NCBI GenBank assembly: GCA_013821315.1
Contig: JACDHA010000002.1
Location: 30,455-94,454 of the forward strand
DNA length: 64,000 nucleotides
Direction: 5' to 3'
Source of the DNA: Candidatus Dependentiae bacterium
Lineage (GTDB): Bacteria; Babelota; Babeliae; Babelales; Babelaceae
Within the stretch, counting starts at the first letter, position 1; every line of letters starts with the position of its first letter. Under the pieces are notes generated by a model. That model made no database searches. It saw nothing but the letters and a program-made list of their open reading frames with translations, and was not told the DNA's origin. Below, piece after piece: positions 3,867 to 34,338 of this stretch. The translations under genes were made by a program, and so were the position numbers.

Positions 3867-5645
3867 ATGACAACATTTTCAAAGTATTTATTCAGTTCTG
3901 TGCTTATCTGTTTACTTTTTTCTAGCTTAAGTGTTTGTATGCATGAAAGTTCTATAGATCAAATGCTTGACAACGTTTTATCACATCCAATTGAACAGTT
4001 AGCTAGTTCAGATTTATCTACTAAGGAACATCTTAAGACAGCTCTGCTTAAAAAATATAGAAAAGTATTAACTCCACTAATTTCTAATTTCCCTATTACG
4101 TCTAAAGTGCTTAGTGGTCACACTGATTATATAACTTCAGTGGCTTTAAGCCCTGATAGTAAATATGCTTTAACTGGATCTTTAGATAAAACTGTTCGCT
4201 TATGGGATACAACCACTCTTACTTGCAGACAGCTTCTAGCATCTACAAGTGGTATAAAGATTGTGGCCTTTAGCCCTGACAGCACTTATGCTCTAGTAGT
4301 TCCAGTAGGTAATATAGTATATGTATTTAACTTAAAAACAGGTAGATCATATAAGTTGCAAGGTCACATAAGTACTATAACCTCACTAGCAATAAGTAGT
4401 GATAGTAAGTATGTATTAACAGGGTCTCGTGAAAAAATTGCTCGTTTATGGGATCTAAAAACAGGGCAATCCCAAATGCTTATAGGTCATAATGGTTGGA
4501 TAACCTCAGTAGCCTTAAGCCCTGATGGTAATTATGCATTAACAGGGTCTACTGATAAAACTGCCCGCTTATGGAACTTAACTAATTGGAAAAGTTATGA
4601 ACTCCCTCATCCTGGCGTAGTAAGGTCAGTAGCGTTTAGTTCTGATAGTAAGTTTGCTTTAAGTGGATCAGAGAGTAATGCGTCAAATGATGAAACTGTA
4701 CGGTTAGTAAATGTAACTACTTGTAAAAGTCGTGTACTTCTCTATACAAGGAATGTGCGCTCAATTACTTTCAGTTCTAAGGGTAAGCATGCTTTAATTG
4801 AATTCTATAAAGGACATAGTAGTATATGTCTATTAAATGCAGAAACATTACAATCACGAGAAGTTGAATGCTCATATGATACTACAACTGTAACATTTAG
4901 TGCTGACGATAAGTATATTTTAAGTGGATCAGGAAATGGTAATCTTAGTGTTTTTGATAGTGAAACAAATACTAACAAAGAAATTCTTAAGGATCATACT
5001 ACTTCTCTCTCATGTATATCATGCAGTGCTAACGGTAAGTCTGTTTTAACTGGCTCTAAAGACACTACGGCATGCTTATGGTCTATAGAAAGTATAGACG
5101 ACTTAACACTTGAGCAGCTTGTATTTCTTGTAAAGCTAGAAACACACTCTTTTAGATTTATTGATGCAGATAAAGAGCACGTGTTAGATTCTTTTACCTC
5201 TTATATAGATAGCTCGCCTAAGCTCCCAAGTGAAAAATATGCCACTAATTCTTTAATTAAAGCCTACATAGATGATAAACGTAATCACCTTTTACAAGCA
5301 GTTGCTCATGATTCTGTAGCAACTGTAGTATATCTTCTTAAAAGAGGCTTTAGTTTAAACACTTGTGACAAAGCGGGTAATAACTTATGGCATTATGCAT
5401 TTAAAGGGTGTGTAAAAGATAGAGTTGCATATCCAAGTACAAATGTTCTTCAATTGTTGCTTTCACTAGAAGGTACCGATAAAGGATGTAGAAAAGCTAA
5501 TAAGGCAGGTCTTTCTCCCTTAATTATCGGGCTTCAGTACAACAAAGAATTTACGCAAGAATTTATTTTTAAGTACTGTGATATAGTCTCTGAAAAAACT
5601 GAAAATGGAGAAAGCAAAAGCTTTAGCCGATGCTCAATCCAATAA
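3867..5645 (+). CDS. Exported WD40-repeat protein with ankyrin-like tail and CaaX box
   Basis: Probable secreted protein-interaction protein, 592 aa. A signal peptide (hydrophobic core about residues 8-24) is followed by about eight WD40 repeats between residues 75 and 410 (recurrent SPDSKYALTGS and DKTVRLWD). Next come a helical linker (LTLEQLVFL) and an ankyrin-like C-terminal module with GFSLNTCD. That module is shared with the ankyrin protein at 32608-34338, which has the same order of elements. The last four residues are CSIQ, a CaaX farnesylation-type box. It is monocistronic with its own promoter and terminator. The eukaryotic-type repeats and CaaX end suggest a host-directed effector. 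The target is unknown. Confidence 0.85.
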   Translation: MTTFSKYLFSSVLICLLFSSLSVCMHESSIDQMLDNVLSHPIEQLASSDLSTKEHLKTALLKKYRKVLTPLISNFPITSKVLSGHTDYITSVALSPDSKYALTGSLDKTVRLWDTTTLTCRQLLASTSGIKIVAFSPDSTYALVVPVGNIVYVFNLKTGRSYKLQGHISTITSLAISSDSKYVLTGSREKIARLWDLKTGQSQMLIGHNGWITSVALSPDGNYALTGSTDKTARLWNLTNWKSYELPHPGVVRSVAFSSDSKFALSGSESNASNDETVRLVNVTTCKSRVLLYTRNVRSITFSSKGKHALIEFYKGHSSICLLNAETLQSREVECSYDTTTVTFSADDKYILSGSGNGNLSVFDSETNTNKEILKDHTTSLSCISCSANGKSVLTGSKDTTACLWSIESIDDLTLEQLVFLVKLETHSFRFIDADKEHVLDSFTSYIDSSPKLPSEKYATNSLIKAYIDDKRNHLLQAVAHDSVATVVYLLKRGFSLNTCDKAGNNLWHYAFKGCVKDRVAYPSTNVLQLLLSLEGTDKGCRKANKAGLSPLIIGLQYNKEFTQEFIFKYCDIVSEKTENGESKSFSRCSIQ

Positions 5646-5665
5646 GAAATTTTATTATTTTCTAT

Positions 5666-5697
5666 AAAAAGGCTCGGTAATTCGAGCCCTTTTTTTT
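5666..5697 (+). terminator. Rho-independent terminator after the WD40 gene
   Basis: Inverted repeat GGCTCG/CGAGCC inside A-rich and T-rich arms, followed by eight T residues. Confidence 0.85.
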
Positions 5698-5759
5698 GTT
5701 CAAGGTTAGTTAACGAGTAGTGTTAATAGTTTAATTTTACTTAAAAAAGCAATTGTGTC

Positions 5760-8561
5760 ATGCTTTTTAAGATTATTTTAAAACTTTTTACTATAGAGCA
5801 TGTTTATGCTAGATCATTACACTTTAAGACTACTGAGGTTCCGGTGGATACTGCCCCAAAAAATAGAGTATTTATAATTGATGGTTCTTCGTTTTTATAT
5901 AGAGCTTATTATAGTATTAGGCCGCTGCATACAAAAGATGGTATTGCTGTTCAGGCTGTCTACGGCTTTTGCCGTATGATTAAAAAGCTTATTGATACGT
6001 ATCAGCCAGAGGGTTTGGTTCTTGTATGGGACAGTAAAGGTAAAACAGTACGTCATGAAATGTATGAAGATTATAAAGATTCACGTCAAGCTGCACCAAG
6101 CGATTTAGTTTCTCAAAAAGAACTTATACAAGAGTTTGCTGATAATATCGGGCTCATACAAGTACAAATGCAAGGTGTTGAAGCTGATGACCTTATGTAT
6201 TCTATTGCTAAAGACCTAGAGCGAGAGCAGTGTCCTTCAGTTTTTGTAACTTCTGATAAAGATATGGGTCAGGCAGTTAGTGAGTATATCTCTATTTTAG
6301 ACCCCTTTAAAGAGGCTTTTATAACTGTTGAAAGTTTACAAGAAAAGCTTGGCTTTGAGATAGCCAAGATACCATTTTATTATGCTCTTGTAGGTGATGC
6401 CGCCGATAGTATTCCTGGTGTTAAAGGTATAGGGCCTAAAGGTGCGCAACAATTAGTGCAGCAATTTAATTCTCTTGAGGATCTCTATGCTAGTATTAAC
6501 GCAGTAAAATCTGTCCGCATTCAAGAACTGCTTATCAATGCTAAAGCAGAGGCTTTTTTAAGTGAGCAACTTTTTATACTACGTATATACGACACCGCAT
6601 TAACAGCGCAAGGTTGTGTTTTTGAGCGCAATAACTGGCATAAAGCACGTTCTTTTTTTGAAAAGCTAGAATTTAAAACATTAGTAAAAGATATAGATAG
6701 TCAAAGCTTAGACAAGCTACAAACAGTAAGTTCTGTGCCAACGCTTCCCTTACATGGTAGGTACACCTTTATACTCGTAAACACAAAAGAGTTGCTTAAC
6801 GAAGTGTGCAACCACATACGTACAGCTAAACACTGTGCACTTGACACAGAAAGTGACGGACTTAAACCATTACAAGCAAATTTAATTGGAATATCTGTCT
6901 GTGTACAAGAGGGAGTATCATATTATATTCCGTTTGGTCATATAACTGATGAGCTGCAACTTTCAAAAACATACGTGCTTGAGCAGCTTAAGCCATTATT
7001 TGAAGATGAACATATTGCAAAGTATTTGCATCATGCAAAATTTGATGCTCTGATGTTGTATCATGCTGGAATAGAACTTAAGGGCATTGTCTTTGATACC
7101 ATGATTGCTGCAAGCTTAGTCGTTCCCGAAGGGCAGCGTATAGGTCTTAAATATCTTTCTGAGTATTATTTTCAAGAGCCCATGCTTTTTTGGAATGATG
7201 TTGTTAAAAAAAATAAATATAAAGACTTTTCTTATGTTCCCTTAGGCATCGCAACTGAGTATGCTGCAGCTGACGCTCATCAAACATATAAGCTTTATAA
7301 CTTGTTTATGAAAGAAGTGCATGATCGCAAGCTAAAAGATTTATTGTTCCATTTAGAAATGCCTACTATGCAGGTGCTCTACGAGATGGAAAAAGAGGGT
7401 GTCTTTGTAGACGTTGCTGTTCTAGAGCAGATTAATACAGTCGTTACACACGATATTACGGTGCTACGCAATGCTATTACCGATTTGCTTGGTGAAAGTT
7501 TTGCTACACTTAATTTAAATTCACCAAAGCAACTTGAAGATCTGTTATTTAATTATCTTAAGCTTCCTGCGGTTAAAAAAACCACTCAAAAGACCGGATA
7601 TTCAACTGATCAAGAAGTGCTTAAAGAACTTGCGCTCCTGCACCCTGTGCCTGGCCTTATTGCAAAATATCGTGAACTTTATAAAATTAAGAGCACCTAT
7701 TTAGAAGGCTTGCGTGATGCTATTAATCCTCATACAGCAAAAGTGCATACAACTTTTAGTCAGACAGCAGTTACTACAGGTCGACTTTCAAGTTCAGAGC
7801 CAAATTTGCAGAATATTCCTGTTGATAAATTACATGTACGTGCTGCATTTAAGCCAAGTGAAAACTATCTGTTTTTATCAGCCGATTACTCACAAATAGA
7901 GCTTCGTGTTCTTGCTTATCTGTCTCAAGATACTACTTTACTATCTGCATTTACTACAGGCCAAGATATCCATACCCTGACTGCAGCAGGTCTTTTTGAT
8001 GTACCGCTTGAGTCGGTAACGCATGAGCAACGCCAAACAGGTAAACGCATTAACTTTAGTATTCTTTATGGTTTAACTGCTCATGGGCTTTCTAAAGATC
8101 TTCACATTAGTCATAAAAAAGCAAAAGAATATATCGATCGCTATATGGCACAGTATCCAGGTGTAGTTGCATGGATGGAAAAAATTACAGAGTTTGCTCA
8201 AGAAAAAGGGTACGTAGAAACCCTCGGTGGTCGGCGCAGATACTTATCTGGTATTCGTGAGAAAAATAGACATCTCTATGATCTTGCTCGTCGTGCAGCT
8301 ATTAATACCGTTGTACAAGGTACTGCAGCTGAGCTTATGAAAAAAGGTATGGTAAACTTACAAGCACACTTTGCTCAAGAGTCGCACAAAGCTAAAATAC
8401 TTATTCAAATTCATGATGAGCTGCTTATTGAAGCGCACAAAGACTATCTTGATTCTATACTAAGTACTGTTGAAACTATTTTAAAAGAAGTAGTAAGTTG
8501 GAACGTGCCTCTTGGTGTTTCAACACGCATTGGAGCTGACTGGCAAGCTGTTACCAAGTAA
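5760..8561 (+). CDS. polA: DNA polymerase I
   Basis: Gap-filling and repair polymerase, 933 aa, with all three domains. 5'-3' exonuclease: DGSSFLYRAYYS near residue 42 and GDAADSIPGVKGIGPKGA. 3'-5' exonuclease: DTESDG near 361 keeps the metal-binding Asp and Glu, so proofreading looks active. Polymerase: motif A DYSQIELR near 708, O-helix RQTGKRINFSILYG, motif C HDELLIEA near 884. About 36 residues precede the usual family start, and no ribosome site supports the ATG at 5760. A GTG at about 5844 (before DTAPKN) is a possible alternative, so the N-terminus is uncertain. Confidence 0.96.
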   Translation: MLFKIILKLFTIEHVYARSLHFKTTEVPVDTAPKNRVFIIDGSSFLYRAYYSIRPLHTKDGIAVQAVYGFCRMIKKLIDTYQPEGLVLVWDSKGKTVRHEMYEDYKDSRQAAPSDLVSQKELIQEFADNIGLIQVQMQGVEADDLMYSIAKDLEREQCPSVFVTSDKDMGQAVSEYISILDPFKEAFITVESLQEKLGFEIAKIPFYYALVGDAADSIPGVKGIGPKGAQQLVQQFNSLEDLYASINAVKSVRIQELLINAKAEAFLSEQLFILRIYDTALTAQGCVFERNNWHKARSFFEKLEFKTLVKDIDSQSLDKLQTVSSVPTLPLHGRYTFILVNTKELLNEVCNHIRTAKHCALDTESDGLKPLQANLIGISVCVQEGVSYYIPFGHITDELQLSKTYVLEQLKPLFEDEHIAKYLHHAKFDALMLYHAGIELKGIVFDTMIAASLVVPEGQRIGLKYLSEYYFQEPMLFWNDVVKKNKYKDFSYVPLGIATEYAAADAHQTYKLYNLFMKEVHDRKLKDLLFHLEMPTMQVLYEMEKEGVFVDVAVLEQINTVVTHDITVLRNAITDLLGESFATLNLNSPKQLEDLLFNYLKLPAVKKTTQKTGYSTDQEVLKELALLHPVPGLIAKYRELYKIKSTYLEGLRDAINPHTAKVHTTFSQTAVTTGRLSSSEPNLQNIPVDKLHVRAAFKPSENYLFLSADYSQIELRVLAYLSQDTTLLSAFTTGQDIHTLTAAGLFDVPLESVTHEQRQTGKRINFSILYGLTAHGLSKDLHISHKKAKEYIDRYMAQYPGVVAWMEKITEFAQEKGYVETLGGRRRYLSGIREKNRHLYDLARRAAINTVVQGTAAELMKKGMVNLQAHFAQESHKAKILIQIHDELLIEAHKDYLDSILSTVETILKEVVSWNVPLGVSTRIGADWQAVTK

Positions 8562-8716
8562 AAAGCTTGTTAAGGTAATAAGTTAAAACATACTCTTTAT
8601 TATCACAAATAAGCAAGTATTTGATAAAACTAATAATTTTATTGAAAATTATATAAATAATAGTATACTTAATAGTATCCAGTAGTTATTTTTAGTATTT
8701 TACTTTAAGAGTTATC

Positions 8717-9595: not shown

Positions 9596-9644
9596 AAGTA
9601 ACTTATGATTAGGTGACAATGGGGACAATGGGGGTTGAAACCAG

Positions 9645-9676
9645 AAAAAAGGGGGAGTGAAAACTCCCCCTTTTTT
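9645..9676. terminator. Bidirectional terminator between convergent genes
   Basis: A6-GGGGGAGT, loop GAAA, ACTCCCCC-T6: a perfect 14-bp stem with a tetraloop and T runs on both strands. Confidence 0.9.
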
Positions 9677-9677
9677 A

Positions 9678-9932
9678 TTACTCGGAGCGACTTGAATTTG
9701 TATAGCTGCTGCATAATTTGCAATTAGCAAAATGAGTAGCGGCAAGTACTAAAGCTGAAAGACCAACAAGAATATAAACACCATTCTTAAGCATTGGATA
9801 TGCTCCAAGAAGTTGTTCTACTAAGTTGAAATCGAATGCTCCTACAAGGCCCCAGTTTAATGCGCCTATTATAGTTAAAGCAAGTGCAACTAAATGTACT
9901 ATTTTTGTTGTATCGTTAACTGTTGATGCCAT
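9678..9932 (-). CDS. DUF378 family small membrane protein
   Basis: 84 aa with two transmembrane segments (about 11-33 and 48-68). The segment IIGALNWGLVGAF, followed by a Leu-rich loop, is the hallmark of DUF378 (YuzA-like) proteins, whose function is unknown. It starts at an ATG 7 bases after AAGGAG. A cysteine pair (CKLC) near the C-terminus is extra to the usual family core. Confidence 0.82.
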   Translation of the reverse strand: MASTVNDTTKIVHLVALALTIIGALNWGLVGAFDFNLVEQLLGAYPMLKNGVYILVGLSALVLAATHFANCKLCSSYTNSSRSE

Positions 9933-9993
9933 GGTAACTCCTTTTTAAGTGTTTTTAAGCTTGATTTATCTTATAAAGATAGTTACGCAATAG

Positions 9994-11612: not shown

Positions 11613-12443
11613 ATGACCAGATTTTTTTGTGTAGCGTTTATACTATTGCCTGTTTTTTCTAATTTTTGCTGTTTGATCTCTTTAGATATTTTTAAAAGCT
11701 CAACAGGTAGCTATGTATACTTGTACACTGAAGATAGGTATGCGCTTAATGCTACAGAAAAATTTATGCAGCTTGAGTTGTTTCAAGCTCTTTTAGAGAG
11801 AGAGCACCATGAAAAATGTACACTAGTTTTACAAGGTGATAGCTTTTCAAGGCAGTTAGAAGATGGTTTAGATAAGAATGTTTTTTCTCAATTAGTTATA
11901 CAAGATCCAGATTTTATAAAAGAATATTTTGAACCGTTAAAAGCATTTAGAAATCATACATTTAAAGATATTTTCACACAACTTAAGCAGCATCTATCAT
12001 TGCTGCAGGGTGTATGGCAAGTTTCTGATATATGTATGCAAGATATCCTACAACAAATAAAAACGCTTAAGCTTGTATTGAAACAATATAATCTTGATAC
12101 AACAACTGAGTTAGATCAAGCAAATCAGTATTTTGCTACCTGTACTTCGTATAGTGATAGTAACAGCGATTTTTTTGCTAATCCCCTCCAGGAGTTGCGT
12201 GATAGCTTTTTAACTTTGTGGTTATTTGGCAAGATTACTTTTCAGCCGGCTGAAAAATTAATTGTTATCACTACTGTCAAACAAAGTAGTGCTCTAAAGC
12301 AACTATTGCTCGAAGGTCACTATACTCTTGTTGATCATTATGGTAGTCAGCATGTTCATCAGCCTTTACCGCTAAAATATATAAAATGTATAAAGAAAAA
12401 AAACAGCAAAAAGCATCATACGTCTGATTGTGTACTCATGTAG
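11613..12443 (+). CDS. Exported protein with polybasic tail and CaaX box CVLM
   Basis: 276 aa. Signal peptide (MTRFFCVAFILLPVFSNFCC), then a domain of unknown function shared with the next gene: both mature proteins begin with a D-[IV]-[FL]-K-S strand and VYLY, and end with a beta segment of the type IVVxxxxxx-LKQxLL. The C-terminus is strongly basic (IKKKNSKKHH) and ends TSDCVLM, closely resembling the K-Ras4B polybasic plus CaaX tail. That tail suggests host prenylation and membrane targeting. No catalytic family is recognised. Confidence 0.8.
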   Translation: MTRFFCVAFILLPVFSNFCCLISLDIFKSSTGSYVYLYTEDRYALNATEKFMQLELFQALLEREHHEKCTLVLQGDSFSRQLEDGLDKNVFSQLVIQDPDFIKEYFEPLKAFRNHTFKDIFTQLKQHLSLLQGVWQVSDICMQDILQQIKTLKLVLKQYNLDTTTELDQANQYFATCTSYSDSNSDFFANPLQELRDSFLTLWLFGKITFQPAEKLIVITTVKQSSALKQLLLEGHYTLVDHYGSQHVHQPLPLKYIKCIKKKNSKKHHTSDCVLM

Positions 12444-12525: not shown

Positions 12526-13434
12526 ATGTATAAAGTAAGTTGGTTGGTACTGGTATCTTTAAGCATACAGTATGCTCAAGCTATTTTAGTGAAAGTTGAT
12601 GTTCTTAAGAGTCCAAGAAACCAGCTTGTCTATTTATACTCAGATTTTCATGATTTTAGTAACCCAGAACTCTTATATAGTCAACTTCAAAATTTTGTCC
12701 AAGCTTTAGCAACTCACGAACAAGAATCAAGTGATACGCTTGTTGTGTTAGTTGAAAAAATAGCGTTGCTTTTAAAAAGACGCCTTAAAGATCCTTGCAT
12801 AACTAATAGACTTGAAGAAGAAATCCAAGAAAAAAACTTGAGTAATACACTTTATGAAGATATAGAAGTTCGTAATGTGCTCATGCTTGCTTACTTACTT
12901 TTCAACCCACAGGTTACTTATACAGGAACTCATGAAACCATTGAAACGTATACTTTTAGAGCTTTATTTGAAGAAATAGAGCTGTATACAAACAAATGCA
13001 CACCCTTGGGACTTAAACATGCAAGGGATATGGGTCTAATAAACTACTACATTGAGTTGCTCTCTGAGCTTATTGAGCAAAATAATTTTAATCTTGATTG
13101 CTCTTTGCTGAAAACAGCTCAAGAATTACAACTGGCGGGAAAGAAAAGTATAGTAGCTGAATTGTATAAGTTAATAACAGATATTGGTGTCTGTTTTTTT
13201 GATATCATGCTGTATGAAAAAATTCAAAATCATCCTGAAGATAAAATAGTAGTAGTTGCCGGTAGTGGCCATGTGCTTATGGTTAAACAAAAGTTACTGA
13301 GAGATAACTATATTTTAGTATATCAGGGTGGGTCTGAAAATCATCTAGATGCAGCACCAGAGCCTTTAGATTTGGGCCCTGGTGAATTTAGAGAAAAAAA
13401 GATTATTAAAAAGACAGAATGTCTTATTGTATAG
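12526..13434 (+). CDS. Exported paralogue of the preceding protein, ends in CLIV
   Basis: 302 aa. Signal peptide (MYKVSWLVLVSLSIQYAQA), then the same fold as the 11613-12443 protein: VDVLKSPRNQLVYLYSDF at the mature N-terminus and IVVVAGSGHVLMVKQKLL near the end. The C-terminus KKIIKKTECLIV is again basic and CaaX-like. Val is a less favoured last residue for known prenyltransferases, so this box is weaker than its neighbour's. It follows the first copy by 82 bases and probably arose by tandem duplication. Its last 11 bases overlap the convergent gene. Confidence 0.78.
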   Translation: MYKVSWLVLVSLSIQYAQAILVKVDVLKSPRNQLVYLYSDFHDFSNPELLYSQLQNFVQALATHEQESSDTLVVLVEKIALLLKRRLKDPCITNRLEEEIQEKNLSNTLYEDIEVRNVLMLAYLLFNPQVTYTGTHETIETYTFRALFEEIELYTNKCTPLGLKHARDMGLINYYIELLSELIEQNNFNLDCSLLKTAQELQLAGKKSIVAELYKLITDIGVCFFDIMLYEKIQNHPEDKIVVVAGSGHVLMVKQKLLRDNYILVYQGGSENHLDAAPEPLDLGPGEFREKKIIKKTECLIV

Positions 13435-24765: not shown

Positions 24766-25599
24766 CTATAGTGTGCTTATTTGTAAAGCAATACTATTTT
24801 TTTTACATAGATATAAAGCTAGATTTCTATTACCGTTTCTTCCGTAGTTAGATACGAAGGGGTAAAGTTTGATATAGTTAAACAAAGCGTTTACATCATA
24901 GTTTTTATCAAATTTCCTAGCAAATAAGCATCCTGTGCGTTTAGCTTTTATAATTAGACTTAGATCTTTTTGATTATTAAAATTACTAAAAGTATAGGGA
25001 TGAGGCCCTCCATTACTCCAATCAACGAATGTTCTATTTTTTTTAACAACTTCTTTTAATAAGTTATGAGCTGCCAGAAATGTTCCTGCATAATGCTCGT
25101 TATCACACGAAGAACGATCTGTTAGGGCAATATAGTAAGTATCTTTTGCCATTAATTCAGTATGCTTTCTATTGAGTATAATCCACTGGCTGTGTTTCAT
25201 TTGTAATTTTAGAGGTATTCCTTTTAGTTGGCGTGTACGGTCAGGATTAGAACCATTGATTGCATGTGGATTAGGAAAATAGTTAAATTCACTTTTATTA
25301 TGCCTCATAATAGCTTTATAAGTGTCTTCGAAGGAACATAGAGGAAGAGTCGATTCAGATAAAAAAACAAATTTCGAGTTTGCCGGATCTTTTAAAGCAT
25401 GTTTAATAAGCTCTATTTGAGCTCTCATTGTATTGCTCCACGTAGTTGGCTTTTTACTAGGTAATTCATATTGTTTAAAGGGAGAAGTATCAGGCAAGCT
25501 ATGTTTAGAATGAATATAAATAGAAGAGTAGGACTCTTTTCCTTTAAAATAATTTTCCCAGATATTTTCATGATATAGAGTTGATATAGTAAGGAACAA
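24766..25599 (-). CDS. Core-2/I-branching (GT14, plant DUF266-like) glycosyltransferase, copy A
   Basis: 277 aa. Motifs typical of the GT14/DUF266 group: YIHSKHSLP, KFVFLSESTLPLCSF, SQWIILNRKH, CDNEHYAGT and RTFVDW. The best analogues known to me are plant and metazoan beta-GlcNAc or arabinoglycan-type transferases. The paralogue at 26707-27462 begins MKIAFLFLT. Here the matching start codon is ATA (25612-25614), so translation must use TTG at 25599 or the gene is poorly expressed. Compared with copy B it has a 32-residue C-terminal extension. It is divergent from the GT-A gene at 25858. Confidence 0.78.
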   Translation of the reverse strand: MFLTISTLYHENIWENYFKGKESYSSIYIHSKHSLPDTSPFKQYELPSKKPTTWSNTMRAQIELIKHALKDPANSKFVFLSESTLPLCSFEDTYKAIMRHNKSEFNYFPNPHAINGSNPDRTRQLKGIPLKLQMKHSQWIILNRKHTELMAKDTYYIALTDRSSCDNEHYAGTFLAAHNLLKEVVKKNRTFVDWSNGGPHPYTFSNFNNQKDLSLIIKAKRTGCLFARKFDKNYDVNALFNYIKLYPFVSNYGRNGNRNLALYLCKKNSIALQISTL

Positions 25600-25857
25600 A
25601 AATGCTATTTTTATGATTTTCTCATTATAAAATTTGCTTATTAACTTTTATATTTAATATAAAGTAAAAATAATAAGTAGGTATAACTCAACTTTAAGAT
25701 ACTACGAGTGCAAATTACAAGGGATATCTAAAATAGCTATAAAATTATGGATACTTAAAAATAGTATTGAAAGACTATTGTTGTTTTATTTAAGATTGAT
25801 AACGTGTTTAGAATATAGAGATAAAATGTATTGTTAAAAACGTATTGAAAGGGCACT

Positions 25858-26625
25858 TTGGTGAGGCATTATTTTTTTAAGTGTTTTTTTTATACACTTT
25901 TGACAATTTTATATGGCAGCTTGCATGCAGGCCAAAAGTCTATAACAATATTTGAAGGAAATGAAAATCCAAAAAAAAAGGTTATCAATGTTAATACTAG
26001 CCAAGTTTATCATACATCTTTACATTTTTTACTTACAACAATAGGCAGGCAATCTATTTTTAGAATGATCAAAAGCCTAGAAAATCAAGTAAAACCACAG
26101 GACTTTCTTACTATAGTGTTTGATAGCAAAGACAGAGACTCTGTTTTCGAGGCGGTAAAAACTAAGGTAACTGAGTTGCCTTGTAAAGTAAACGTCATGT
26201 GGGAAGAAAAAAACTTAGGGTATTGGGGCCATGCAATCAGAAATAAGCATAACAATTTACCTGGTGACTTTATACTTCATTGTGATGATGATGACATCTA
26301 TCTACCAGGTAGCTTAGATACTATACGAGCTGTATGTCAAAATAAAAATAAGTTATATGTTTTCCGTTTTCGCATGTTAGGGTCTAATGTCTGGAATGAG
26401 CCTAGAATAGCTATGTCAAATATAGGTACACCTTGTGGTGTTATTCCTAGTGCATATAACTTGTTATCTACATGGGAACCTGTTGTAGGTGGAGATTGTA
26501 TGTTTTATGAAAACTTAGCCAAAGCCATTGGTGATAATAAATTAGTATTTGTAGATTATTTAATTTACTTTGTTAAAAACTCTGGCCATGGTAGAGCAAA
26601 TTTGATTAACCAATTGCAAGTATGA
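25858..26625 (+). CDS. Exported GT-A glycosyltransferase, copy A
   Basis: About 255 aa. Signal peptide (CFFYTLLTILYGSLHAG), then a GT2-like nucleotide-diphospho-sugar fold: SLHFLLTTIGRQSIFRMIKS, the metal-binding cluster HCDDDDIYLPGSLD and a GDCMFYENL acceptor-side motif. The start is GTG (25861) or TTG (25858) after AAAGGG. The paralogue uses ATG at the matching place. It forms a divergent pair with the GT14 gene. The sugar specificity cannot be read from the sequence. Confidence 0.8.
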   Translation: MVRHYFFKCFFYTLLTILYGSLHAGQKSITIFEGNENPKKKVINVNTSQVYHTSLHFLLTTIGRQSIFRMIKSLENQVKPQDFLTIVFDSKDRDSVFEAVKTKVTELPCKVNVMWEEKNLGYWGHAIRNKHNNLPGDFILHCDDDDIYLPGSLDTIRAVCQNKNKLYVFRFRMLGSNVWNEPRIAMSNIGTPCGVIPSAYNLLSTWEPVVGGDCMFYENLAKAIGDNKLVFVDYLIYFVKNSGHGRANLINQLQV

Positions 26626-26645
26626 ATTTACTAGTAAAGTTTATA

Positions 26646-26692
26646 AAAGAGAAAAGTCTTGCAGTTTTAACTGCAAGACTTTTCTCTTTTAT
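26646..26692. terminator. Bidirectional terminator between convergent glycosyltransferase genes
   Basis: Near-perfect palindrome of about 46 bases with arms AAAAGAGAAAAGTCTTGCAG and its complement, a tiny TTTTAA-type loop, and A/T runs on both sides. Confidence 0.88.
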
Positions 26693-26706
26693 AAAGCAAC
26701 TATATC

Positions 26707-27462
26707 TTATAGTTTAATATAATTAAATAAAGCAGTTGAGTTATAGCTTTTATCAAATTTTCTAGCAAATAAGCATCCTGCACGTTTAGCTTTTACAATA
26801 AGACTTAGGTCTTTTTGATTATAAAAATTACTAAAAGTATAAGGATGTGATTCAGAGCCTCTGTCCCAATCTACAAACGTTCTATCTTTTTTGACAACTT
26901 CTTTTAATAAATTATGAGCGGCCAGAAATGTTCCAGCATAATGTTCATTATCACAGCTATAACGATCTGTTATGGTGACATAGTAATTATCTTTTGCTAT
27001 TAATTCAGCATGCTTTCTGTTGAGTATTATCCATTGGGAGTGTTTCATTTGCAAATTTTTAGGTATTTCCTTTAGGCTTCGAGCAGGATTAAAAGCAGAA
27101 CCATTGATTGCATGTGGATTAGGAAAATAGTTAAATTCACTTTTATCATGCCTCATAATAGTTTTATAAGTGTCTTCGAAGGAGCATAGAGGAAGAGTCG
27201 ATTCAGATAAAAAAACAAATTTCGAGTTTGCCGGATCTTTTAAAGCATGTTTAATAAGCTCTATTTGAGCTCTCATAGTATTGCTCCACGTAGTTGGTTT
27301 TTTACTAGATAATTCATATTGTTTAAAGGCAGAAGAATTAGGTAAACTATTTTTAGAATGAATATAAATAGAACAGTGAGACTCTTTTCCCCTAAAATAA
27401 TTTTGCCAAATATTTTCATGGTACATAGTTGCTATAGTAAGAAACAAAAATGCTATTTTCAT
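26707..27462 (-). CDS. Core-2/I-branching (GT14, plant DUF266-like) glycosyltransferase, copy B
   Basis: 251 aa and highly similar to copy A along its whole length, with the same FVFLSESTLPLCSF, SQWIILNRKHAEL and CDNEHYAGTF motifs. It starts with a normal ATG (MKIAFLFLT, which is the first beta strand of the fold and not an obvious signal peptide) after AAGGAAA. It ends at NYIKL, lacking the C-terminal 32 residues of copy A. Divergent from the GT-A gene at 27671. Confidence 0.8.
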   Translation of the reverse strand: MKIAFLFLTIATMYHENIWQNYFRGKESHCSIYIHSKNSLPNSSAFKQYELSSKKPTTWSNTMRAQIELIKHALKDPANSKFVFLSESTLPLCSFEDTYKTIMRHDKSEFNYFPNPHAINGSAFNPARSLKEIPKNLQMKHSQWIILNRKHAELIAKDNYYVTITDRYSCDNEHYAGTFLAAHNLLKEVVKKDRTFVDWDRGSESHPYTFSNFYNQKDLSLIVKAKRAGCLFARKFDKSYNSTALFNYIKL

Positions 27463-27670
27463 AATTTCCTTTTTATGTTTACTGTAAATATAGATAATAA
27501 GTACTGCTAGCTAAATTTTAAAATTCTACTAATGGTAATTGCAAGGTATCTTATAAAAATCATACATGTTCTAAGCGCTTTAAGAATAATGTTGAAAAAT
27601 TAGTTGCTTTTTATTTAAGATTGACAATGCGTTTAAAGTACACGGACAAAAATGTATTGGAAGGGACATA

Positions 27671-28423
27671 ATGGTAAAGCGCTATTTTTTTAAGTATTTT
27701 TTTTACTCACTTTTAACAATCTTGTATAGTGGATTATATGCAAGTCAAAAGTCTATAACAATATTTGAGGGTAATGAAAATCCCACAAAAAAGGTTATCA
27801 GTATTAATTCAAAAAATACTTATCCTACTTCTTTGCACTTTTTACTAACGACAATCGGTAGGCAATCTATTTTTAGAATGATCAAAAGCTTAGAAAAACA
27901 GCTAAAACCCCAGGACTTTCTTACGATAGTTTTTGATAATAAAGATAAAGAATCTGTTTTTGAAGGTGTAAAACTTAAATTAGCTCAATTACCGTGTAAT
28001 GCCGAAGTAATTTGGGAAGAAAAGAATTTAGGATATTGGGGCCATGCAATTAGAAATAAGTATAAGAGATTGCCAGGTGACTTTATACTTCATTGCGATG
28101 ATGACGATATGTATCTACCGGGTAGCTTAGATACTATAAGGGCTGTATGCCAAGATAAAAGTAAATTATATTTTTTTCGTCTTAGATCTGCAGGATCAAG
28201 TATATGGAGAGATCCTCATGTTCGAATAGGTAACATGGGAACGCCTTGTGGTGTAATTCCTAGGGCCTATAACTCTTTATCTCGTTGGGGATACTTTTAT
28301 GGGGGTGATGGAGCATTTTATATGAAATTAGTTAGAAAGATTGGTAATCACAATGTAATATTTGTTGATTCCTTAATCTATTTTGTTAAAGGTGCTGGTA
28401 ATGGTAGAAAATACCTTATTTAA
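27671..28423 (+). CDS. Exported GT-A glycosyltransferase, copy B
   Basis: 250 aa, paralogue of the 25858 gene. Signal peptide (YFFYSLLTILYSGLYAS), LLTTIGRQSIFRMIKSLE, HCDDDDMYLPGSLDTIRAV and a GGDGAFYMKL motif. GGAAGGGA precedes the ATG. The second half has diverged more than the first (acceptor side), which suggests a different acceptor from copy A. Confidence 0.82.
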   Translation: MVKRYFFKYFFYSLLTILYSGLYASQKSITIFEGNENPTKKVISINSKNTYPTSLHFLLTTIGRQSIFRMIKSLEKQLKPQDFLTIVFDNKDKESVFEGVKLKLAQLPCNAEVIWEEKNLGYWGHAIRNKYKRLPGDFILHCDDDDMYLPGSLDTIRAVCQDKSKLYFFRLRSAGSSIWRDPHVRIGNMGTPCGVIPRAYNSLSRWGYFYGGDGAFYMKLVRKIGNHNVIFVDSLIYFVKGAGNGRKYLI

Positions 28424-28447
28424 GAAACATTATTTATAACTTCTTGT

Positions 28448-28480
28448 ATTTTAAGGCCCTAAATTTTAGGGCCTTAAAAT
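28448..28480. terminator. Bidirectional terminator
   Basis: Perfect 16-bp inverted repeat ATTTTAAGGCCCTAAA with a one-base centre, between the convergent GT-A and CDF genes. Confidence 0.85.
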
Positions 28481-28502
28481 TTACTCAAATGATAAAGCCA
28501 GC

Positions 28503-29387: not shown

Positions 29388-29466
29388 ATTTACCTCAAAA
29401 ATTAAAAAATTAATTACTTGCTCTTAGTGTACACTAAAATACACAAACACCTAGGGCGTTTATATA

Positions 29467-29492
29467 AAAAGAAGGCCTCATGACCTTCTTTT
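29467..29492 (-). terminator. Terminator of the thioredoxin-NHL gene
   Basis: AAAAGAAGG and CCTTCTTTT arms with an 8-base loop, 8 bases after the stop on the minus strand. Confidence 0.75.
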
Positions 29493-29499
29493 ACTTATT

Positions 29500-31035
29500 T
29501 TATATAGTGCAGTTAGAGCACGTAACTGGATCTAGTGCTGAGGAAGTATAAATAGTGAGTTCTTTTGTATTCTGTGTTTGGGTATCAAGAACTATAATTC
29601 GGTGATTATTAGTATCAGCTATATAAAGTAGAGTATCAGCTTTAACTATATCGTTGGGTTCGTTGTACTGTGTTTGCAGTAGTGGCCCTACGCTGCTGCC
29701 CCGTTGGCCTGTACCGCTGTAGTTGGTAAGGCGTTCAGTTTGAATGTCATAGCATCTAATAGCATGATTATAAGAATCCGCTATATAAATAATGTTGGCA
29801 TCTGCCTCTAGGCCCAGAGGATGTTGCATTAAGGCTGTCGCTTTAGTGCCTTCTGTGTAACCAAAGTCAAAAAGTCCTGTGCCTATCAGGGTAGTAATAT
29901 TTTTGTCATCAAGTACTCGCAGTGAACTTGTTTCAGAATCTACAAAATAAAGCTTACTCTTTTGGGCACTTAATCCGCTTGGTTGCGAAAGGGTATTAAC
30001 GGGGTAAAAGCCATCAACCATAGATTCTTGGCCATTGCCTGCTCGAATAGAGAGCATCTGTGTCTCTAAGTTATATATCCAAAGTTGATGAGTGCCTGCC
30101 ATAGCAATGGTTATCTCTTTATCAGTTGGATAAAAAGATAAATCCCAAGGAGATGATAGAGAGGCGCTCCGTGCATGCAGTTTTCCATGCAATATATAAG
30201 AGCCTTGCTGACCGGTACCGGCTAGTGTGGTTACTTGCCCTGTTTTAAAATCTGCCACACGTAGTAAATGGTTATTCGTGTCAGCAATATACAAAGCTCC
30301 TGAGTTATACAGAATGCCTTGTGGTTTATTAAATTGTGTTTGGTTAAAAGAGCCATCATCAGCACCCGAGATACCTGATCCAATAGATAAAGAGAGCTCT
30401 CCTGATGGTCGTACACCTAAAATTCTATTGTTACTGCTGTCAGAGATAAAGAGTAATGGTTGCCCATCAAAGTTAGGTACATACTCTAATTTGCTTGGAA
30501 AATTAAGGCTATGAGGCGATTGTTTTGTCGCTTCAAGTTCAAGAGGCAAGGGGGTAGTGTTAATGCGGTCGCCATACTGTTTGATTAAGCTTTGTATAGC
30601 TTGCTGTAACTCTTGTGTATGACCTTCGCCACCATATACTTCTTCAATACGTCCTTTGGGATTAAGTAGGATCAATGTAGGCCAGCCACGAATGCCAAAC
30701 AAATTCCATAAGTGAAAATCGCTATCATTAATTACCGGATGCTCGATGCCGTATTTAATAATAGCGGCTTTGATAGTTTCTTGATCTTTTTCATTGGTAA
30801 ATTTAGCCGAATGTACTCCAATAATAGTCAAAGCATTTCCAAATTCTTTTTCAAGTTTATGGAGCTCTGGTATAATGTGTATACAGTTAATGCAACAAAA
30901 TGTCCAAAAATCAAGAAGTATAATACGTCCTTGAAGATCTTGAGGGGTTAAAGGGCGAGCAAGGTTAAGCCACCTATTTTGCTGTGTAATCGCTTGATGT
31001 AGAGCAGTGCTTACCAGCTCTTTGTTTTTATGCAT
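29500..31035 (-). CDS. Thioredoxin-NHL repeat protein (NHLRC2-like)
   Basis: 511 aa. Residues 1-150 are a thioredoxin-like domain with the unusual active site WTFCCINC (Cys 47, 48 and 51), as in animal NHLRC2 and its bacterial relatives. Residues about 185-500 hold six NHL beta-propeller repeats (for example LYIADTNNHLLRV, IYIADSYNHAIRC, LYIADTNNHRIIV). It ends in CSNC, a second cysteine pair. No signal peptide, so probably cytosolic. The role is probably redox or scaffolding and is unproven in bacteria. Confidence 0.88.
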   Translation of the reverse strand: MHKNKELVSTALHQAITQQNRWLNLARPLTPQDLQGRIILLDFWTFCCINCIHIIPELHKLEKEFGNALTIIGVHSAKFTNEKDQETIKAAIIKYGIEHPVINDSDFHLWNLFGIRGWPTLILLNPKGRIEEVYGGEGHTQELQQAIQSLIKQYGDRINTTPLPLELEATKQSPHSLNFPSKLEYVPNFDGQPLLFISDSSNNRILGVRPSGELSLSIGSGISGADDGSFNQTQFNKPQGILYNSGALYIADTNNHLLRVADFKTGQVTTLAGTGQQGSYILHGKLHARSASLSSPWDLSFYPTDKEITIAMAGTHQLWIYNLETQMLSIRAGNGQESMVDGFYPVNTLSQPSGLSAQKSKLYFVDSETSSLRVLDDKNITTLIGTGLFDFGYTEGTKATALMQHPLGLEADANIIYIADSYNHAIRCYDIQTERLTNYSGTGQRGSSVGPLLQTQYNEPNDIVKADTLLYIADTNNHRIIVLDTQTQNTKELTIYTSSALDPVTCSNCTI

Positions 31036-31214
31036 GACTACTCCCTTAAAATACCCGTTTTTTCTAAATCTATCGTTACTGTTTAAGTAAGTTCAAGAGT
31101 AGTTTTCGTACTTAATACGTATTGCCCTTTGGCCACGTATCTTTTATACTCAAAATATAAGAGTTTGTTAGCTAAAAACAATTAATCTAAACACAGTTAT
31201 TAATAGGGAGTAGT

Positions 31215-31685
31215 ATGAATAGCAAGAATAAAGTACTTTTATGCGTTGCAGTAACAGCAATTGGATGCATACTTGCAGTAAAAACATATTCAAAAAAACA
31301 ACTTATAGATTCGAGGTCTCCAGATATGTCAGTAATTACACGCCCTTCAGGTCTTTCATTTGAAATCCTTAAAGCAGGAAACGGGGAAACTACCCCTAAA
31401 CCAGGACAAGTGGTAAAAGTACACTATACCGGTTGGCTCGACGATGCAGGCAAACCAGGTAAAAAGTTTGACAGCAGTGTTGATCGTGGTACCCCTTTTG
31501 AATTTGTTATAGGTGTTGGCCAAGTTATCAAAGGTTGGGACGAAGGTGTGCTTGAGATGAAAGAAGGCGAAAAGCGCCGTTTAATTATTCCTGCTCAGTT
31601 GGGCTATGGTTCACGTGGTGCAGGCGGCGTTATACCTGGTAATGCAACTTTAATTTTTGATGTTGAACTTATTAGTTTTAAATAA
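31215..31685 (+). CDS. FKBP-type peptidyl-prolyl cis-trans isomerase
   Basis: 156 aa. An N-terminal membrane anchor or signal (VLLCVAVTAIGCILAVKTY) is followed by a single FKBP domain: VKVHYTGWL, KFDSSVDRGTPFEFVIG, GQVIKGWDEGV, and PAQLGYGSRG. All the main active-site aromatic and acidic positions (Y, F, D, V-I, W, Y) are kept. It probably folds exported proteins in the periplasm. GGGAG precedes the ATG. Confidence 0.93.
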   Translation: MNSKNKVLLCVAVTAIGCILAVKTYSKKQLIDSRSPDMSVITRPSGLSFEILKAGNGETTPKPGQVVKVHYTGWLDDAGKPGKKFDSSVDRGTPFEFVIGVGQVIKGWDEGVLEMKEGEKRRLIIPAQLGYGSRGAGGVIPGNATLIFDVELISFK

Positions 31686-31791
31686 GATATTTGGGTGTCA
31701 CCCCAAAGTCAAAAGTGTACTCAAACAGAGCGCCCAAAAATATTTCACTTCGAGTAAAGTAATTAAAAATTACTCAAAACCCATTTTGGAC

Positions 31792-31820
31792 TTGACAAAT
31801 AGAAATTATTATGTTATGAT
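31792..31820 (+). promoter_or_regulatory. Strong promoter of the unassigned small RNA
   Basis: TTGACA at 31792-31797, a 17-base spacer and TATGAT at 31815-31820. The predicted start (about 31827) coincides with the first base of the RNA's closing stem. Confidence 0.75.
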
Positions 31821-31827
31821 AAAAATA

Positions 31828-32008
31828 AGTCAATACACAAAGCGAAAGCTTGCTATCCTGGTTTTATAATATGTCGTAAGGCATACAAAAGAGACTCCTG
31901 GTAGTGGGACTGAATAAAAAGCCCTGAGTATTGACTCTCTATTTAAATAAAAAATAATTAAGAACAGCAGCCCAAAACAAAAATGAGAGCCTTTACGGCT
32001 CTTTTTTT
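31828..32008 (+). ncRNA. Candidate structured small RNA, family not recognised
   Basis: No open frame. A near-consensus promoter at 31792-31820 would start transcription at the 5' arm of a perfect 9-bp stem, AGTCAATAC (31828-31836) with GTATTGACT (31928-31936). Inside lie two GNRA-capped hairpins: AAGC-GAAA-GCTT (31840-31851) and TATGTC-GTAA-GGCATA (31870-31885). A rho-independent terminator (AGAGCC/GGCTCT then T run) ends at 32008. The size and solo transcription recall 6S-type RNAs, but I see no defining conserved bases of 6S, SRP RNA or RNase P RNA. It lies immediately upstream of ssrA. Confidence 0.6.
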
Positions 32009-32013
32009 GATGG

Positions 32014-32042
32014 TTGACAAATATTAGCACTAGAGGTATAAT
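32014..32042 (+). promoter_or_regulatory. Consensus promoter of ssrA
   Basis: TTGACA at 32014-32019, exactly 17 bases, then TATAAT at 32037-32042: both hexamers match the sigma70 consensus perfectly. The mature tmRNA starts 44 bases later. Confidence 0.9.
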
Positions 32043-32085
32043 AATTACATATAGAAATTCTTGTTAGAAATTCTTTGAAATTTTT

Positions 32086-32461
32086 GGGGGCGTAATGGCT
32101 TCGACGTGGTATGAGCGGTTTGAAGAGCATGTCGAGCTTTAACTGTGTGCTCGTTAAAAAAATGGTTAAACAATACATGCAAACAATAGCATGAGTGCTT
32201 TCAATAGCACGCCCGCTTTCGCGTAATAGCTTAAGCAGCTTGGTAGGACAGTGTGCCTATGCATTGGCCTAACTCGTATAACCCTTTATAGGACTGGAAA
32301 GCAAGGTTCACTTGGTATGTAGCTTTTCTGAACACAAACCAGGCGTGTTTGTATAGCGTGTCTTTTAGGAATAAGGAACACGTACAAGAAAAAGACTAAA
32401 CATGTAGCGCTTTAAGCTAATCGTAGTACGGACATGGGTTCGACTCCCATCGCCTCCACCA
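32086..32461 (+). ncRNA. ssrA: Transfer-messenger RNA (tmRNA)
   Basis: Rescues stalled ribosomes with SmpB. The 5' end GGGGGCG pairs with CGCCTCC at the 3' end (one G-U pair), followed by an encoded ACCA. The T arm is GGGTTCGACTCCC. The tag frame starts at GCA (32179) and reads ANNSMSAFNSTPAFA, then TAA TAG. The tag ends -PAFA and not the usual -LAA. About 376 nt, a single uninterrupted molecule. Confidence 0.96.
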
Positions 32462-32468
32462 AAATATA

Positions 32469-32498
32469 AACCTGTAGTGTAAAAACTGCAGGTTTTTT
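32469..32498 (+). terminator. Terminator of ssrA
   Basis: AACCTGTAG/CTGCAGGTT stem (one G-U pair) followed by a T run, 8 bases after the mature 3' end. Confidence 0.85.
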
Positions 32499-32607
32499 AT
32501 TTTTAAAAAAATTATATATTAAATTTTGAATTTACTTTTTTTTAAATTTAATATATAATTAATAATATTATTTATATAATTTTGAATTATTCCAATTGAG
32601 GCGTCAT

Positions 32608-34338
32608 ATGAATTATCGTATTATTTTTGTTTCTTTGTTTTTTATGTCATTTAATTATTCTATGGATACGGCTATACATCCTATTTTAAATGCACAGTAT
32701 AGAACAGCTATGTATCAAGGTGATAAAGAAAAAATAAAAGAATTATTGCTTCTTATCTCTGAAGGCAATGATGCAACTATGGTAGGTATCCAAGTGCTTC
32801 GCTTTGCGGTACAAAATAATTTAATAGAAGCTGCTCAAGCATTAATTGATTTAGGTATAGATGGTAATGCCCAAACAGAAGATGGCTGGACTCCGCTTAC
32901 TGCCGCAGTAAAAAATGGTTGCGCAGAAATGGTTAAACTATTACTTAAAGCAGGTATCAATAGGTCTGGTACAAATAAAGATGGTTGGTCACCACTTGAT
33001 ATAGCTGCTCACAGTGGCCATAGAGAAAGCCTTGAGCTACTGCTTAGTGCAGGAATAGATAGTAATGCTCAAGGTATTTTTGGCTGGACGCCACTTCATA
33101 GTGCGGCATTTCAAGGTCATGAAGAAATGGTTAAATTTTTAATTGGTTTAGGTGCAGACTTAGACATTCGCTCAATGGATGGTTGGACAGCACTTCATAG
33201 GGCAATACAAGGTGGTCATGCTAATATAGTCCGCCTATTATTAGATGCAAACGCTCTTATCGATGCTCAATGGAAGGGCCGCAACATGCCCTTTTATGTA
33301 GCATTAGAAAATGGTCGTACAGATGTATTAAAAACATTACTTGATGCTGGTGCTGATGTTAATGCTCAAGATAGTTTATCTATAGTAGTCCAAAATGAGC
33401 ATAAAGAAGCTGCTCGACTATTGCTTCAATCAGGTGCGGATGTTGATGCTCCAGATGCTTCTGGTTTAACGTGCTTGCATAAAGCTTCAAAAAGTGGCTA
33501 TACAGCAATGGTTCAGCTGTTACTTGAATTTAAGGCGAATATGCGTGTTATTGATACTCGTGGTTTTACTCCACTGTGCTATGCTGCAGAACAGGGTCAT
33601 CAAAAAGTAGCTCAATTATTGATTGATGCCGGCGCTGATATTGATTTTAAAAGCCCAACTGGGATTACACCACTCTATAGAGCTACACAACATGGTCAAA
33701 AAGCAATGGTTAAATTGTTACTTAATGCGGGTGCTAAAGTTGACAGTAGAGATGCCGATGGCTTTATGCCATTATATGTAGCAGTAAAAGCTGGTCATAT
33801 AACCATAACGGAGATGTTACTCAGTTTTATGCAAGAGTCTCAAATACCCCAAAATCTTATACATAATTTTATGGTAATTCGAGCTCAAGATAATCTTAGA
33901 GCCTTAGAACAAGCACCTAATCTTCAAGCTAAAGTTAGACTATTGCATAGAAATGTTTTTCTCTCTTCAAGGGTAAAAGAGCAACTTCGTAGTGAGAAAA
34001 CCAAGTTATTTGATGCTATTAAAGAAGATAATGTTGAACAAGTTGCTTGCCTGCTTAAAGGAGGTTTTAGCTTAAATACTTGTGATCAAAATAACGATAC
34101 TCTGTGGCATGCAGCAATGAAGTATGCTAGTGGTAAAGTATTAGCATTCCTATTAAGCTTGTACCCTTCATACACTGTGAGTGTTTGGGATAAAAAAAAC
34201 AATCAGGGTCTTACTCCTCTAGAAGTTGCTGTATTGAGTGGCAATGGTCTGTTTTTACAAGATATAGTTACTAAAATAATGGCGGGAACTCCTGTTGTAG
34301 TAGATACTAAAAAAACGAGATCCTGTGTAATTCAATAA
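32608..34338 (+). CDS. Exported ankyrin-repeat protein with CaaX box CVIQ
   Basis: 576 aa from the ATG at 32608, chosen because GAGG lies 7 bases upstream (an in-frame TTG at 32596 is less likely). Signal peptide (IIFVSLFFMSFNYS), then about eleven ankyrin repeats (for example GWTPLHSAAFQGHEEMVKFL). A final module carries LLKGGFSLNTCD and TLWHAA, shared with the C-terminus of the WD40 protein at 3867-5645. It ends KKTRSCVIQ, a good CaaX farnesylation box after basic residues. A probable host-directed effector, by analogy with prenylated Legionella ankyrin effectors. Not demonstrated here. Confidence 0.85.
   Translation: MNYRIIFVSLFFMSFNYSMDTAIHPILNAQYRTAMYQGDKEKIKELLLLISEGNDATMVGIQVLRFAVQNNLIEAAQALIDLGIDGNAQTEDGWTPLTAAVKNGCAEMVKLLLKAGINRSGTNKDGWSPLDIAAHSGHRESLELLLSAGIDSNAQGIFGWTPLHSAAFQGHEEMVKFLIGLGADLDIRSMDGWTALHRAIQGGHANIVRLLLDANALIDAQWKGRNMPFYVALENGRTDVLKTLLDAGADVNAQDSLSIVVQNEHKEAARLLLQSGADVDAPDASGLTCLHKASKSGYTAMVQLLLEFKANMRVIDTRGFTPLCYAAEQGHQKVAQLLIDAGADIDFKSPTGITPLYRATQHGQKAMVKLLLNAGAKVDSRDADGFMPLYVAVKAGHITITEMLLSFMQESQIPQNLIHNFMVIRAQDNLRALEQAPNLQAKVRLLHRNVFLSSRVKEQLRSEKTKLFDAIKEDNVEQVACLLKGGFSLNTCDQNNDTLWHAAMKYASGKVLAFLLSLYPSYTVSVWDKKNNQGLTPLEVAVLSGNGLFLQDIVTKIMAGTPVVVDTKKTRSCVIQ

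What the first reader, a model, noticed from the sequence alone, without database searches (positions are those of the whole stretch)
3867..34338. Four exported proteins end in CaaX prenylation boxes
The WD40 protein (CSIQ), the two paralogues at 11613 and 12526 (CVLM, CLIV) and the ankyrin protein (CVIQ) have a signal peptide at one end and a CaaX box at the other. CVLM follows IKKKNSKKHH, like the K-Ras4B tail; CLIV follows KKIIKKTE. Bacteria have no CaaX prenyltransferases, but Legionella effectors are known to be prenylated by the host. Four such ends among the exported proteins is unlikely to be chance and points to a family of lipidated effectors.
Basis: partly seen in the sequence, partly recalled or inferred. 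Interest (0 to 1): 0.93.

Follow-up and report, generated by a model that had tools for sequence, protein, structure and literature searches.

The report
Exported proteins with host-lipid CaaX tails
In this bacterium, apparently related to parasites of amoebae and flagellates, about one in fifteen of the sampled proteins with a predicted export signal ends in the four-residue CaaX tag that eukaryotic cells use to attach a lipid, so the host cell likely fastens these bacterial proteins to its own membranes.

Summary
The four CaaX ends are real, and they are part of a wider pattern. In a 464 kb sample of the genome (391 called genes), Cys at position -4 occurs in 17 of 183 signal-peptide-like (SP) proteins against 5 of 208 others. 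It is the strongest residue-by-position outlier at their C-termini. Farnesyl-type ends (C-x-[VILMT]-[QSMA]) number 12 of 183 against 1 of 208. A second genome has the exact published length of Chromulinavorax destructans and shows the same with X = Ser (11 of 144 against 0 of 134). A third, with Babela massiliensis's exact length, is suggestive (3 of 87 against 0 of 150). One family relative has an excess of C-x-[IV]-Q-stop sites. Fourteen other sampled members of the order give 1 of 383 against 0 of 517, so the trait is patchy. A CaaX end survives in a diverged homologue (CLIV/CIIA at 48% identity). No protein prenyltransferase or VirB4 was found; three secretins were. Best reading: proteins exported by Sec, and likely a type II system, are farnesylated by the protist host and held on host membranes. 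This is a new variant of the Legionella/Salmonella CaaX-effector theme, because the delivery route differs. Modification and delivery are untested. My paper searches found none linking Dependentiae with CaaX.

The parts
3867..5645 (+). Exported WD40 beta-propeller protein (592 aa) with a C-terminal module shared with the ankyrin protein; ends RCSIQ
   Evidence: WD40 E 5e-49; 32% identity over 170 columns at the C-terminus; homologue in L117 also ends RCSIQ
3867..3941 (+). Predicted signal peptide of the WD40 protein (approximate end)
   Evidence: heuristic SP call
5631..5645 (+). CaaX codons CSIQ plus stop
   Evidence: G000:C2:36085-36099
11613..12443 (+). Exported protein without a Pfam match (276 aa), basic stretch then CVLM
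   Evidence: 97% homologue P0003 keeps CVLM
12429..12443 (+). CaaX codons CVLM plus stop
12526..13434 (+). Exported protein without a confident Pfam match (302 aa), distant relative of 11613-12443, ends CLIV
   Evidence: homologue P0002 (48%) ends CIIA; model: alpha/beta core about 24-268, tail 270-302 below pLDDT 50
13420..13434 (+). CaaX codons CLIV plus stop
32596..34338 (+). Exported ankyrin-repeat protein (580 aa from TTG, 576 aa from the ATG at 32608), ends CVIQ
   Evidence: Ank_2 E 7e-97
32608..32661 (+). Predicted signal peptide of the ankyrin protein (approximate end)
   Evidence: heuristic SP call
34324..34338 (+). CaaX codons CVIQ plus stop
   Evidence: G000:C2:64778-64792

Best explanation
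These are proteins predicted to be exported by the Sec pathway that end in a CaaX box, and the likely mechanism is that they reach the cytosol of the protist host, where the host's farnesyltransferase would attach a lipid to the Cys and so anchor them on host membranes. Shown: the tails, their strong bias to SP-called proteins, their farnesyl-type consensus (X mostly Gln in this genome, Ser in the Chromulinavorax-length genome), their occurrence on ankyrin, WD40, Sel1 and orphan proteins, and retention of the end in a diverged homologue. Inferred: Sec export, outer-membrane crossing by a type II (GspD-like) system or by vesicles, access to host cytosol, farnesylation by the host, and trimming and methylation of the end. 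The ankyrin or WD40 domain would then act as a membrane-bound docking platform for host proteins.
For: Enrichment in SP-called proteins and at position -4 only. Tail consensus: among SP-called proteins with Cys at -4, a2 in VILMT and X in QSMA together in 12 of 17 (G000) and 11 of 13 (G041), against backgrounds of 7.2% and 8.4% in the other SP-called proteins. Different X in different lineages, both farnesyltransferase-type (enzyme preference recalled). Whole-genome site counts: C-x-[IV]-Q-stop 27 in G000 against 10.0 expected from the other 48 genomes, 42 in G006 against 11.8; C-x-[IV]-S-stop (TCN codons) highest of 101 genomes in G041, 45 against 19 for its reversed control. Ends kept in homologues. 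No PF01239 match, no VirB4, three secretins, the one scanned being nearest to GspD though below its cut-off. Babela's paper reports type II as the only secretion system detected and no isoprenoid synthesis (PMC4378268 passages). SP-called proteins elsewhere in the window include enzymes whose substrates or cofactors (GDP-sugars, S-adenosylmethionine; recalled) are cytosolic, which fits work in host cytosol better than in a periplasm.
Against: No biochemical evidence. Patchy: 1 of 383 SP-called proteins in 14 other sampled genomes, 0 of 56 in G048, which carries the same genus label as G041; by the wider rule (a2 aliphatic, any X) those 14 give 3 of 383 SP-called against 5 of 517 others, no bias at all. 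In G006 the unbiased stretches gave 0 of 62 SP-called and 1 of 69 others. The farnesyl-type rule was written after the first look at the tails. SP calls come from my own heuristic, which has evident doubtful calls. Many carriers are ankyrin paralogues (28 of 55 Cys -4 proteins in one cluster), so events are fewer than proteins. Some tails are off-consensus (CLIV, CEIV, CTAN, CLHK, CIIE). Absence of PF00432 is not shown, since that control rang nowhere.
Confidence: 0.72

Rival explanations
1. The C-terminal Cys motif is a bacterial sorting or surface-anchoring signal, processed by the bacterium's own enzymes (as in MYXO-CTERM-like systems, recalled), not by the host.
For: The motif sits on SP-called proteins; in G006 a longer tail (LDKDTxELxC-S-I-Q and variants) is shared by WD40 and orphan proteins, as sorting tags are. 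An Rce1-like protease domain occurs in G000 and G041.
Against: No Rce1-like match in G006, which has the largest site excess, nor in G002; that family also rings in 11 of 14 control genomes. By eye, little but C-a-a-X is shared between the lineages' tails, and the 12 residues before the Cys hold no common hydrophobic helix. The fit to eukaryotic farnesyltransferase preference (aliphatic a2; Q, S, M at X; recalled) would be a coincidence.
Confidence: 0.13
2. The ends are inherited by descent within expanded ankyrin/WD40 families and carry no function of their own.
For: 28 of 55 Cys -4 proteins fall in one similarity cluster linked by ankyrin repeats; L013 and L084 hold near-identical tails.
Against: Tail-collapsed counts stay high (12 of 109 and 10 of 99 groups); a CaaX end persists while the residues before it diverge; unrelated proteins carry the motif (Sel1 protein L014, the 11613/12526 pair).
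Confidence: 0.08
3. A Cys near the C-terminus serves disulphide bonding or another redox role in the periplasm.
For: The proteins are SP-called, so would pass an oxidising compartment.
Against: Only position -4 is enriched, not -3, -5 or others, and the residues after it are constrained.
Confidence: 0.04

Closest known systems
Legionella prenylated effectors (Pel/CMP proteins, AnkB)
   Same: Bacterial proteins with eukaryotic-like domains and a CaaX end, from bacteria living in protists; AnkB too is an ankyrin protein (PMC13081727, PMC4322725, passages).
   Different: Those are Dot/Icm type IV substrates, 7 to 12 per strain by those passages; here the proteins bear Sec-type signals, no VirB4 was found, and 12 farnesyl-type ends on SP-called proteins occur in about a third of the genome.
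Salmonella SifA and GtgE
   Same: CaaX end used by host prenylation to place an effector on membranes (PMC13423502, start of abstract; SifA in a passage).
   Different: Single effectors in an unrelated phylum; delivered by type III systems without a Sec signal (recalled).
Secreted ankyrin proteins of Babela massiliensis and Chromulinavorax destructans
   Same: Same phylum; the papers report many ankyrin proteins with signal peptides and propose secretion into the host (passages).
   Different: No paper in the library holds 'Dependentiae' with 'CaaX', and neither of these two is among the 8 papers holding 'Babel*' with 'CaaX'.
Bacterial C-terminal sorting signals (MYXO-CTERM, PEP-CTERM type; recalled)
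   Same: Short C-terminal tag on many unrelated exported proteins.
   Different: Those have a transmembrane helix and a basic stop (recalled); the tails here show no common helix in the 12 residues before the Cys and end exactly three residues after it.

Membership tests
Host-prenylated CaaX effectors | C-terminal C-a-a-X of a type that eukaryotic prenyltransferases use | tested here: met
   12 of 183 SP-called vs 1 of 208 others in G000; 11 of 144 vs 0 of 134 in G041; consensus test. In the window CSIQ, CVLM and CVIQ fit the rule; CLIV has X = Val
Host-prenylated CaaX effectors | No prenyltransferase of the bacterium's own | tested here: inconclusive
   PF01239 0 matches, but it rang in only 2 controls and below cut-off; PF00432 0 matches, but the control rang nowhere
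Host-prenylated CaaX effectors | Delivered into host cytosol | not testable with these tools
   Inferred only; SP-called nucleotide-sugar enzymes in the window fit a cytosolic site of action
Host-prenylated CaaX effectors | Cys is lipidated by host enzymes and needed for membrane placement | not testable with these tools
   Needs the bench tests listed
Legionella Pel effectors (Dot/Icm substrates) | Type IV secretion, no Sec signal | tested here: not met
   Sec-type N-termini by heuristic; no match to VirB4 PF03135 in the genome, the family ringing in 1 of 14 controls. It may work like a Pel effector but is not one
Bacterial C-terminal sorting signals | Hydrophobic helix plus basic end next to the motif | tested here: not met
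   12 residues before the Cys listed for 53 SP-called proteins; no common hydrophobic run seen by eye
Bacterial C-terminal sorting signals | Dedicated processing enzyme present wherever the tag is | tested here: inconclusive
   Rce1-like family in G000 and G041 but not in G006 or G002; sortase-like and other enzyme families not searched

The most novel reading that the evidence does not exclude
A phylum of obligate protist parasites has evolved, in several lineages, a genome-wide Sec/type II-exported effector repertoire that is finished by the host: dozens of ankyrin, WD40 and orphan proteins carry a farnesylation tail, with the X residue (Gln, Ser) set separately in each lineage, perhaps to the farnesyltransferase of its own host.
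Probability: 0.6. Interest if true: 0.88.

Novelty: new variant of a known kind. Interest (0 to 1): 0.8.

Why it matters
Dependentiae are known mostly from sequence, and how their many signal-peptide ankyrin proteins act on the host is open. A CaaX end gives a directly testable prediction for these proteins: they must enter host cytosol to be modified, and they should sit on membranes. It would also mean that host prenylation is exploited by bacteria without a type III or IV injector, and the cultured isolate Chromulinavorax, grown in a flagellate, makes the test practical.

Tried and rejected
A fold for the 12526 protein: the model from a three-row alignment has mean pLDDT 66 and pTM 0.68; no PDB match reached E 0.001, best E 1.2e-3 with TM 0.34 to a Tetrahymena complex IV chain, so no function is claimed. 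The DUF5694 hint (E 0.03, below cut-off) was not pursued. The search with the ankyrin protein's C-terminal module found nothing at E <= 0.001 among 852 candidates. A polybasic tail as a general feature was rejected: mean net charge of the 12 residues before the Cys is +0.8 in G000, +0.5 in G041, -2.9 in G006. The relatives search with polA gave 30 loci, among them one very near contig, L117, filed under 'Tatlockia sp.' but 96% identical, and one Dependentiae contig, L140; the L140 stretch held no CaaX gene among the 8 called there with a borrowed codon model that missed polA itself, so this says little. The 11613 protein matched nothing in 49 relatives.

Bias notes: the farnesyl-type rule was fixed after I had seen the tails (and, for G041, those). 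G006's 15 of 50 SP-called carriers come from ten stretches chosen around pattern hits and are not a rate; its other stretches gave 0 of 62. The five small G000 stretches were also chosen by pattern hits; with L155, 8 of 10 pattern sites looked at there end a called gene, and 7 of those 8 are SP-called. Of the 13 C-x-[IV]-Q-stop sites inside the sampled G000 stretches and the window, 10 coincide with called gene ends, 2 do not, and 1 lies at a stretch edge (read). In one search, four control loci under 10 kb and L140 were dropped, and three genomes gave no result in the side test on Met after the signal.
Full report
What is there. The window lies in a 1.44 Mb draft genome of 58 contigs. The four genes are as described: WD40 protein (CSIQ), the 11613 and 12526 proteins (CVLM, CLIV), ankyrin protein (CVIQ). 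The WD40 and ankyrin proteins share a C-terminal module (32% over 170 columns).

Is it chance? I called genes in the window plus twenty 20-kb stretches (464 kb, 391 genes) with a codon-usage caller and sorted them into SP-like, membrane and cytosolic by a hydropathy rule. Cys at -4: 17 of 183 SP-called, 5 of 208 others (Fisher p 0.003). With an aliphatic a2 and any X: 15 of 183 against 3 of 208 (p 0.001). Farnesyl-type ends C-x-[VILMT]-[QSMA], x not Pro: 12 of 183 against 1 of 208 (p 7e-4); this last rule was written after seeing the tails. Among all residues and the last twelve positions of SP-called proteins, Cys at -4 is the top outlier in G000 (17, 2.1 expected, 7e-11) and in G041 (13, 1.8 expected, 6e-8), and is not among the eight listed for G002 (p uncorrected). 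Collapsing similar tails keeps the signal: 12 of 109 groups in G000 and 10 of 99 in G041, with 0 to 5 at each other position. Twenty-four loci of other bacteria give farnesyl-type ends in 0 of 109 SP-called and 1 of 350 others.

How far does it reach? G041: 11 of 144 against 0 of 134, all C-[ATVI]-[IV]-Ser. G002: 3 of 87 against 0 of 150 (CLLS, CALS, CLVS; p 0.048). Fourteen further genomes, each sampled with 20 to 100 kb: 1 of 383 against 0 of 517; with any X, 3 of 383 against 5 of 517, so no bias there. G005 has two SP-called ends CALV and CTIV. Whole-genome counts of the DNA for C-x-[IV]-Q-stop: G000 27 and G006 42, against 10.0 and 11.8 expected from the other 48 genomes. In G006, stretches taken around hits hold 15 SP-called carriers among 50, WD40 and orphan proteins, 14 of them with one common tail; stretches taken without regard to hits, 179 kb, gave 0 of 62 SP-called and 1 of 69 others. 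For C-x-[IV]-S-stop, G041 has the largest count of 101 genomes, 45 against 19 for its reversed control; G000 has 33 against 24. In G000, four CTIS ends and one CTVS end were found at such sites. So the trait is strong in some lineages and missing or rare in most of those sampled.

What carries it? Of 34 Cys -4 proteins scanned with Pfam, 17 are ankyrin proteins, 10 have beta-propeller matches (WD40 type, two of them weak, and one lactonase type), 1 has Sel1 repeats and 6 have no match. The tails fall into 11 groups among 15 aliphatic-a2 proteins in G000 and 9 among 11 in G041. The tail of the 12526 model is of low confidence, as a free tail would be.

Conservation. A homologue of 12526 at 48% identity ends CIIA, with a different linker. 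A 97% homologue of 11613 keeps CVLM, which says little. A WD40 homologue in L117 (54% overall) keeps RCSIQ after a changed linker.

Mechanism. Shown: tails, bias, consensus, retention. Inferred: export, delivery, lipid. The genome has three secretins, the one scanned (part of its frame) nearest to GspD but below the family cut-off, a TolC-like protein and no VirB4 match. The Babela paper names type II as the only secretion system detected and reports no isoprenoid synthesis; the Chromulinavorax paper reports putative outer-membrane vesicles and signal peptides on 44% of coding sequences (passages). Chromulinavorax is described in host cytoplasm from 3 h; Babela first in a vacuole, its growing bodies also apparently in one vacuole (passages). 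For a bacterium free in the cytosol, type II release would put a folded protein where farnesyltransferase is; for one in a vacuole a further membrane must be crossed. SP-called proteins elsewhere in the window include a GDP-mannose 4,6-dehydratase, an epimerase of the GDP-fucose synthase kind (name by eye), one methyltransferase and glycosyltransferases (a second methyltransferase is membrane-called); such enzymes need cytosolic substrates or cofactors (recalled). This fits delivery to host cytosol but does not prove it.

Known or new? Host prenylation of bacterial CaaX effectors is established for Legionella and Salmonella (passages; abstract start). Searches for Dependentiae with prenylation and with CaaX gave 0 papers each; Babel* with CaaX gave 8 unrelated papers by their titles; Dependentiae with type II secretion and farnesyl gave one review whose farnesyl passages concern Legionella AnkB; type II secretion, signal peptide and CaaX together gave one general review. 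The library lacks most subscription papers. The new part is the SP-plus-CaaX architecture, its scale, and its occurrence with lineage-specific X. Rivals are a bacterial sorting tag (13%), mere descent (8%) and a redox Cys (4%).

Noticed in passing
49056-51288: GDP-mannose 4,6-dehydratase (50116-51288) and a related epimerase (49056-50090), both SP-called, although their substrates and cofactors are cytosolic.
   Followed up: partly
44790-59459: Several SP-called or membrane-called glycosyltransferases and methyltransferases, including a glycosyltransferase family 6 protein (53063-53821).
   Followed up: partly
24766-28423: What looks like a tandem duplication of a two-gene unit: 24766-25599 resembles 26707-27462, and 25858-26625 resembles 27671-28423 (by eye).
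   Followed up: no
L117: A contig 96% identical in polA to the window is filed under 'Tatlockia sp. MGR_bin59' (a Legionella relative, recalled); likely a mis-binned Dependentiae contig.
   Followed up: partly
G000, G006, G002 SP-called proteins: Met is enriched about 5-7 residues after the hydrophobic core of the signal (e.g. 0.14 against 0.013 in G002; weaker in G041), as if mature proteins often begin near a Met.
   Followed up: partly
L189-L198 (G006): An acidic tail LDKDTxELxC-[SC]-[IL]-Q shared by WD40 and orphan proteins.
   Followed up: partly
35084-36727: An ATPase-like gene appears split in two ORFs (by eye); described only.
   Followed up: no
G000:C4:39442-39732 and G041:C1:432163-432462: Rce1-like domain inside frames of about 1,100 aa in the two genomes with the clearest CaaX bias; no match in G002 and G006.
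   Followed up: no
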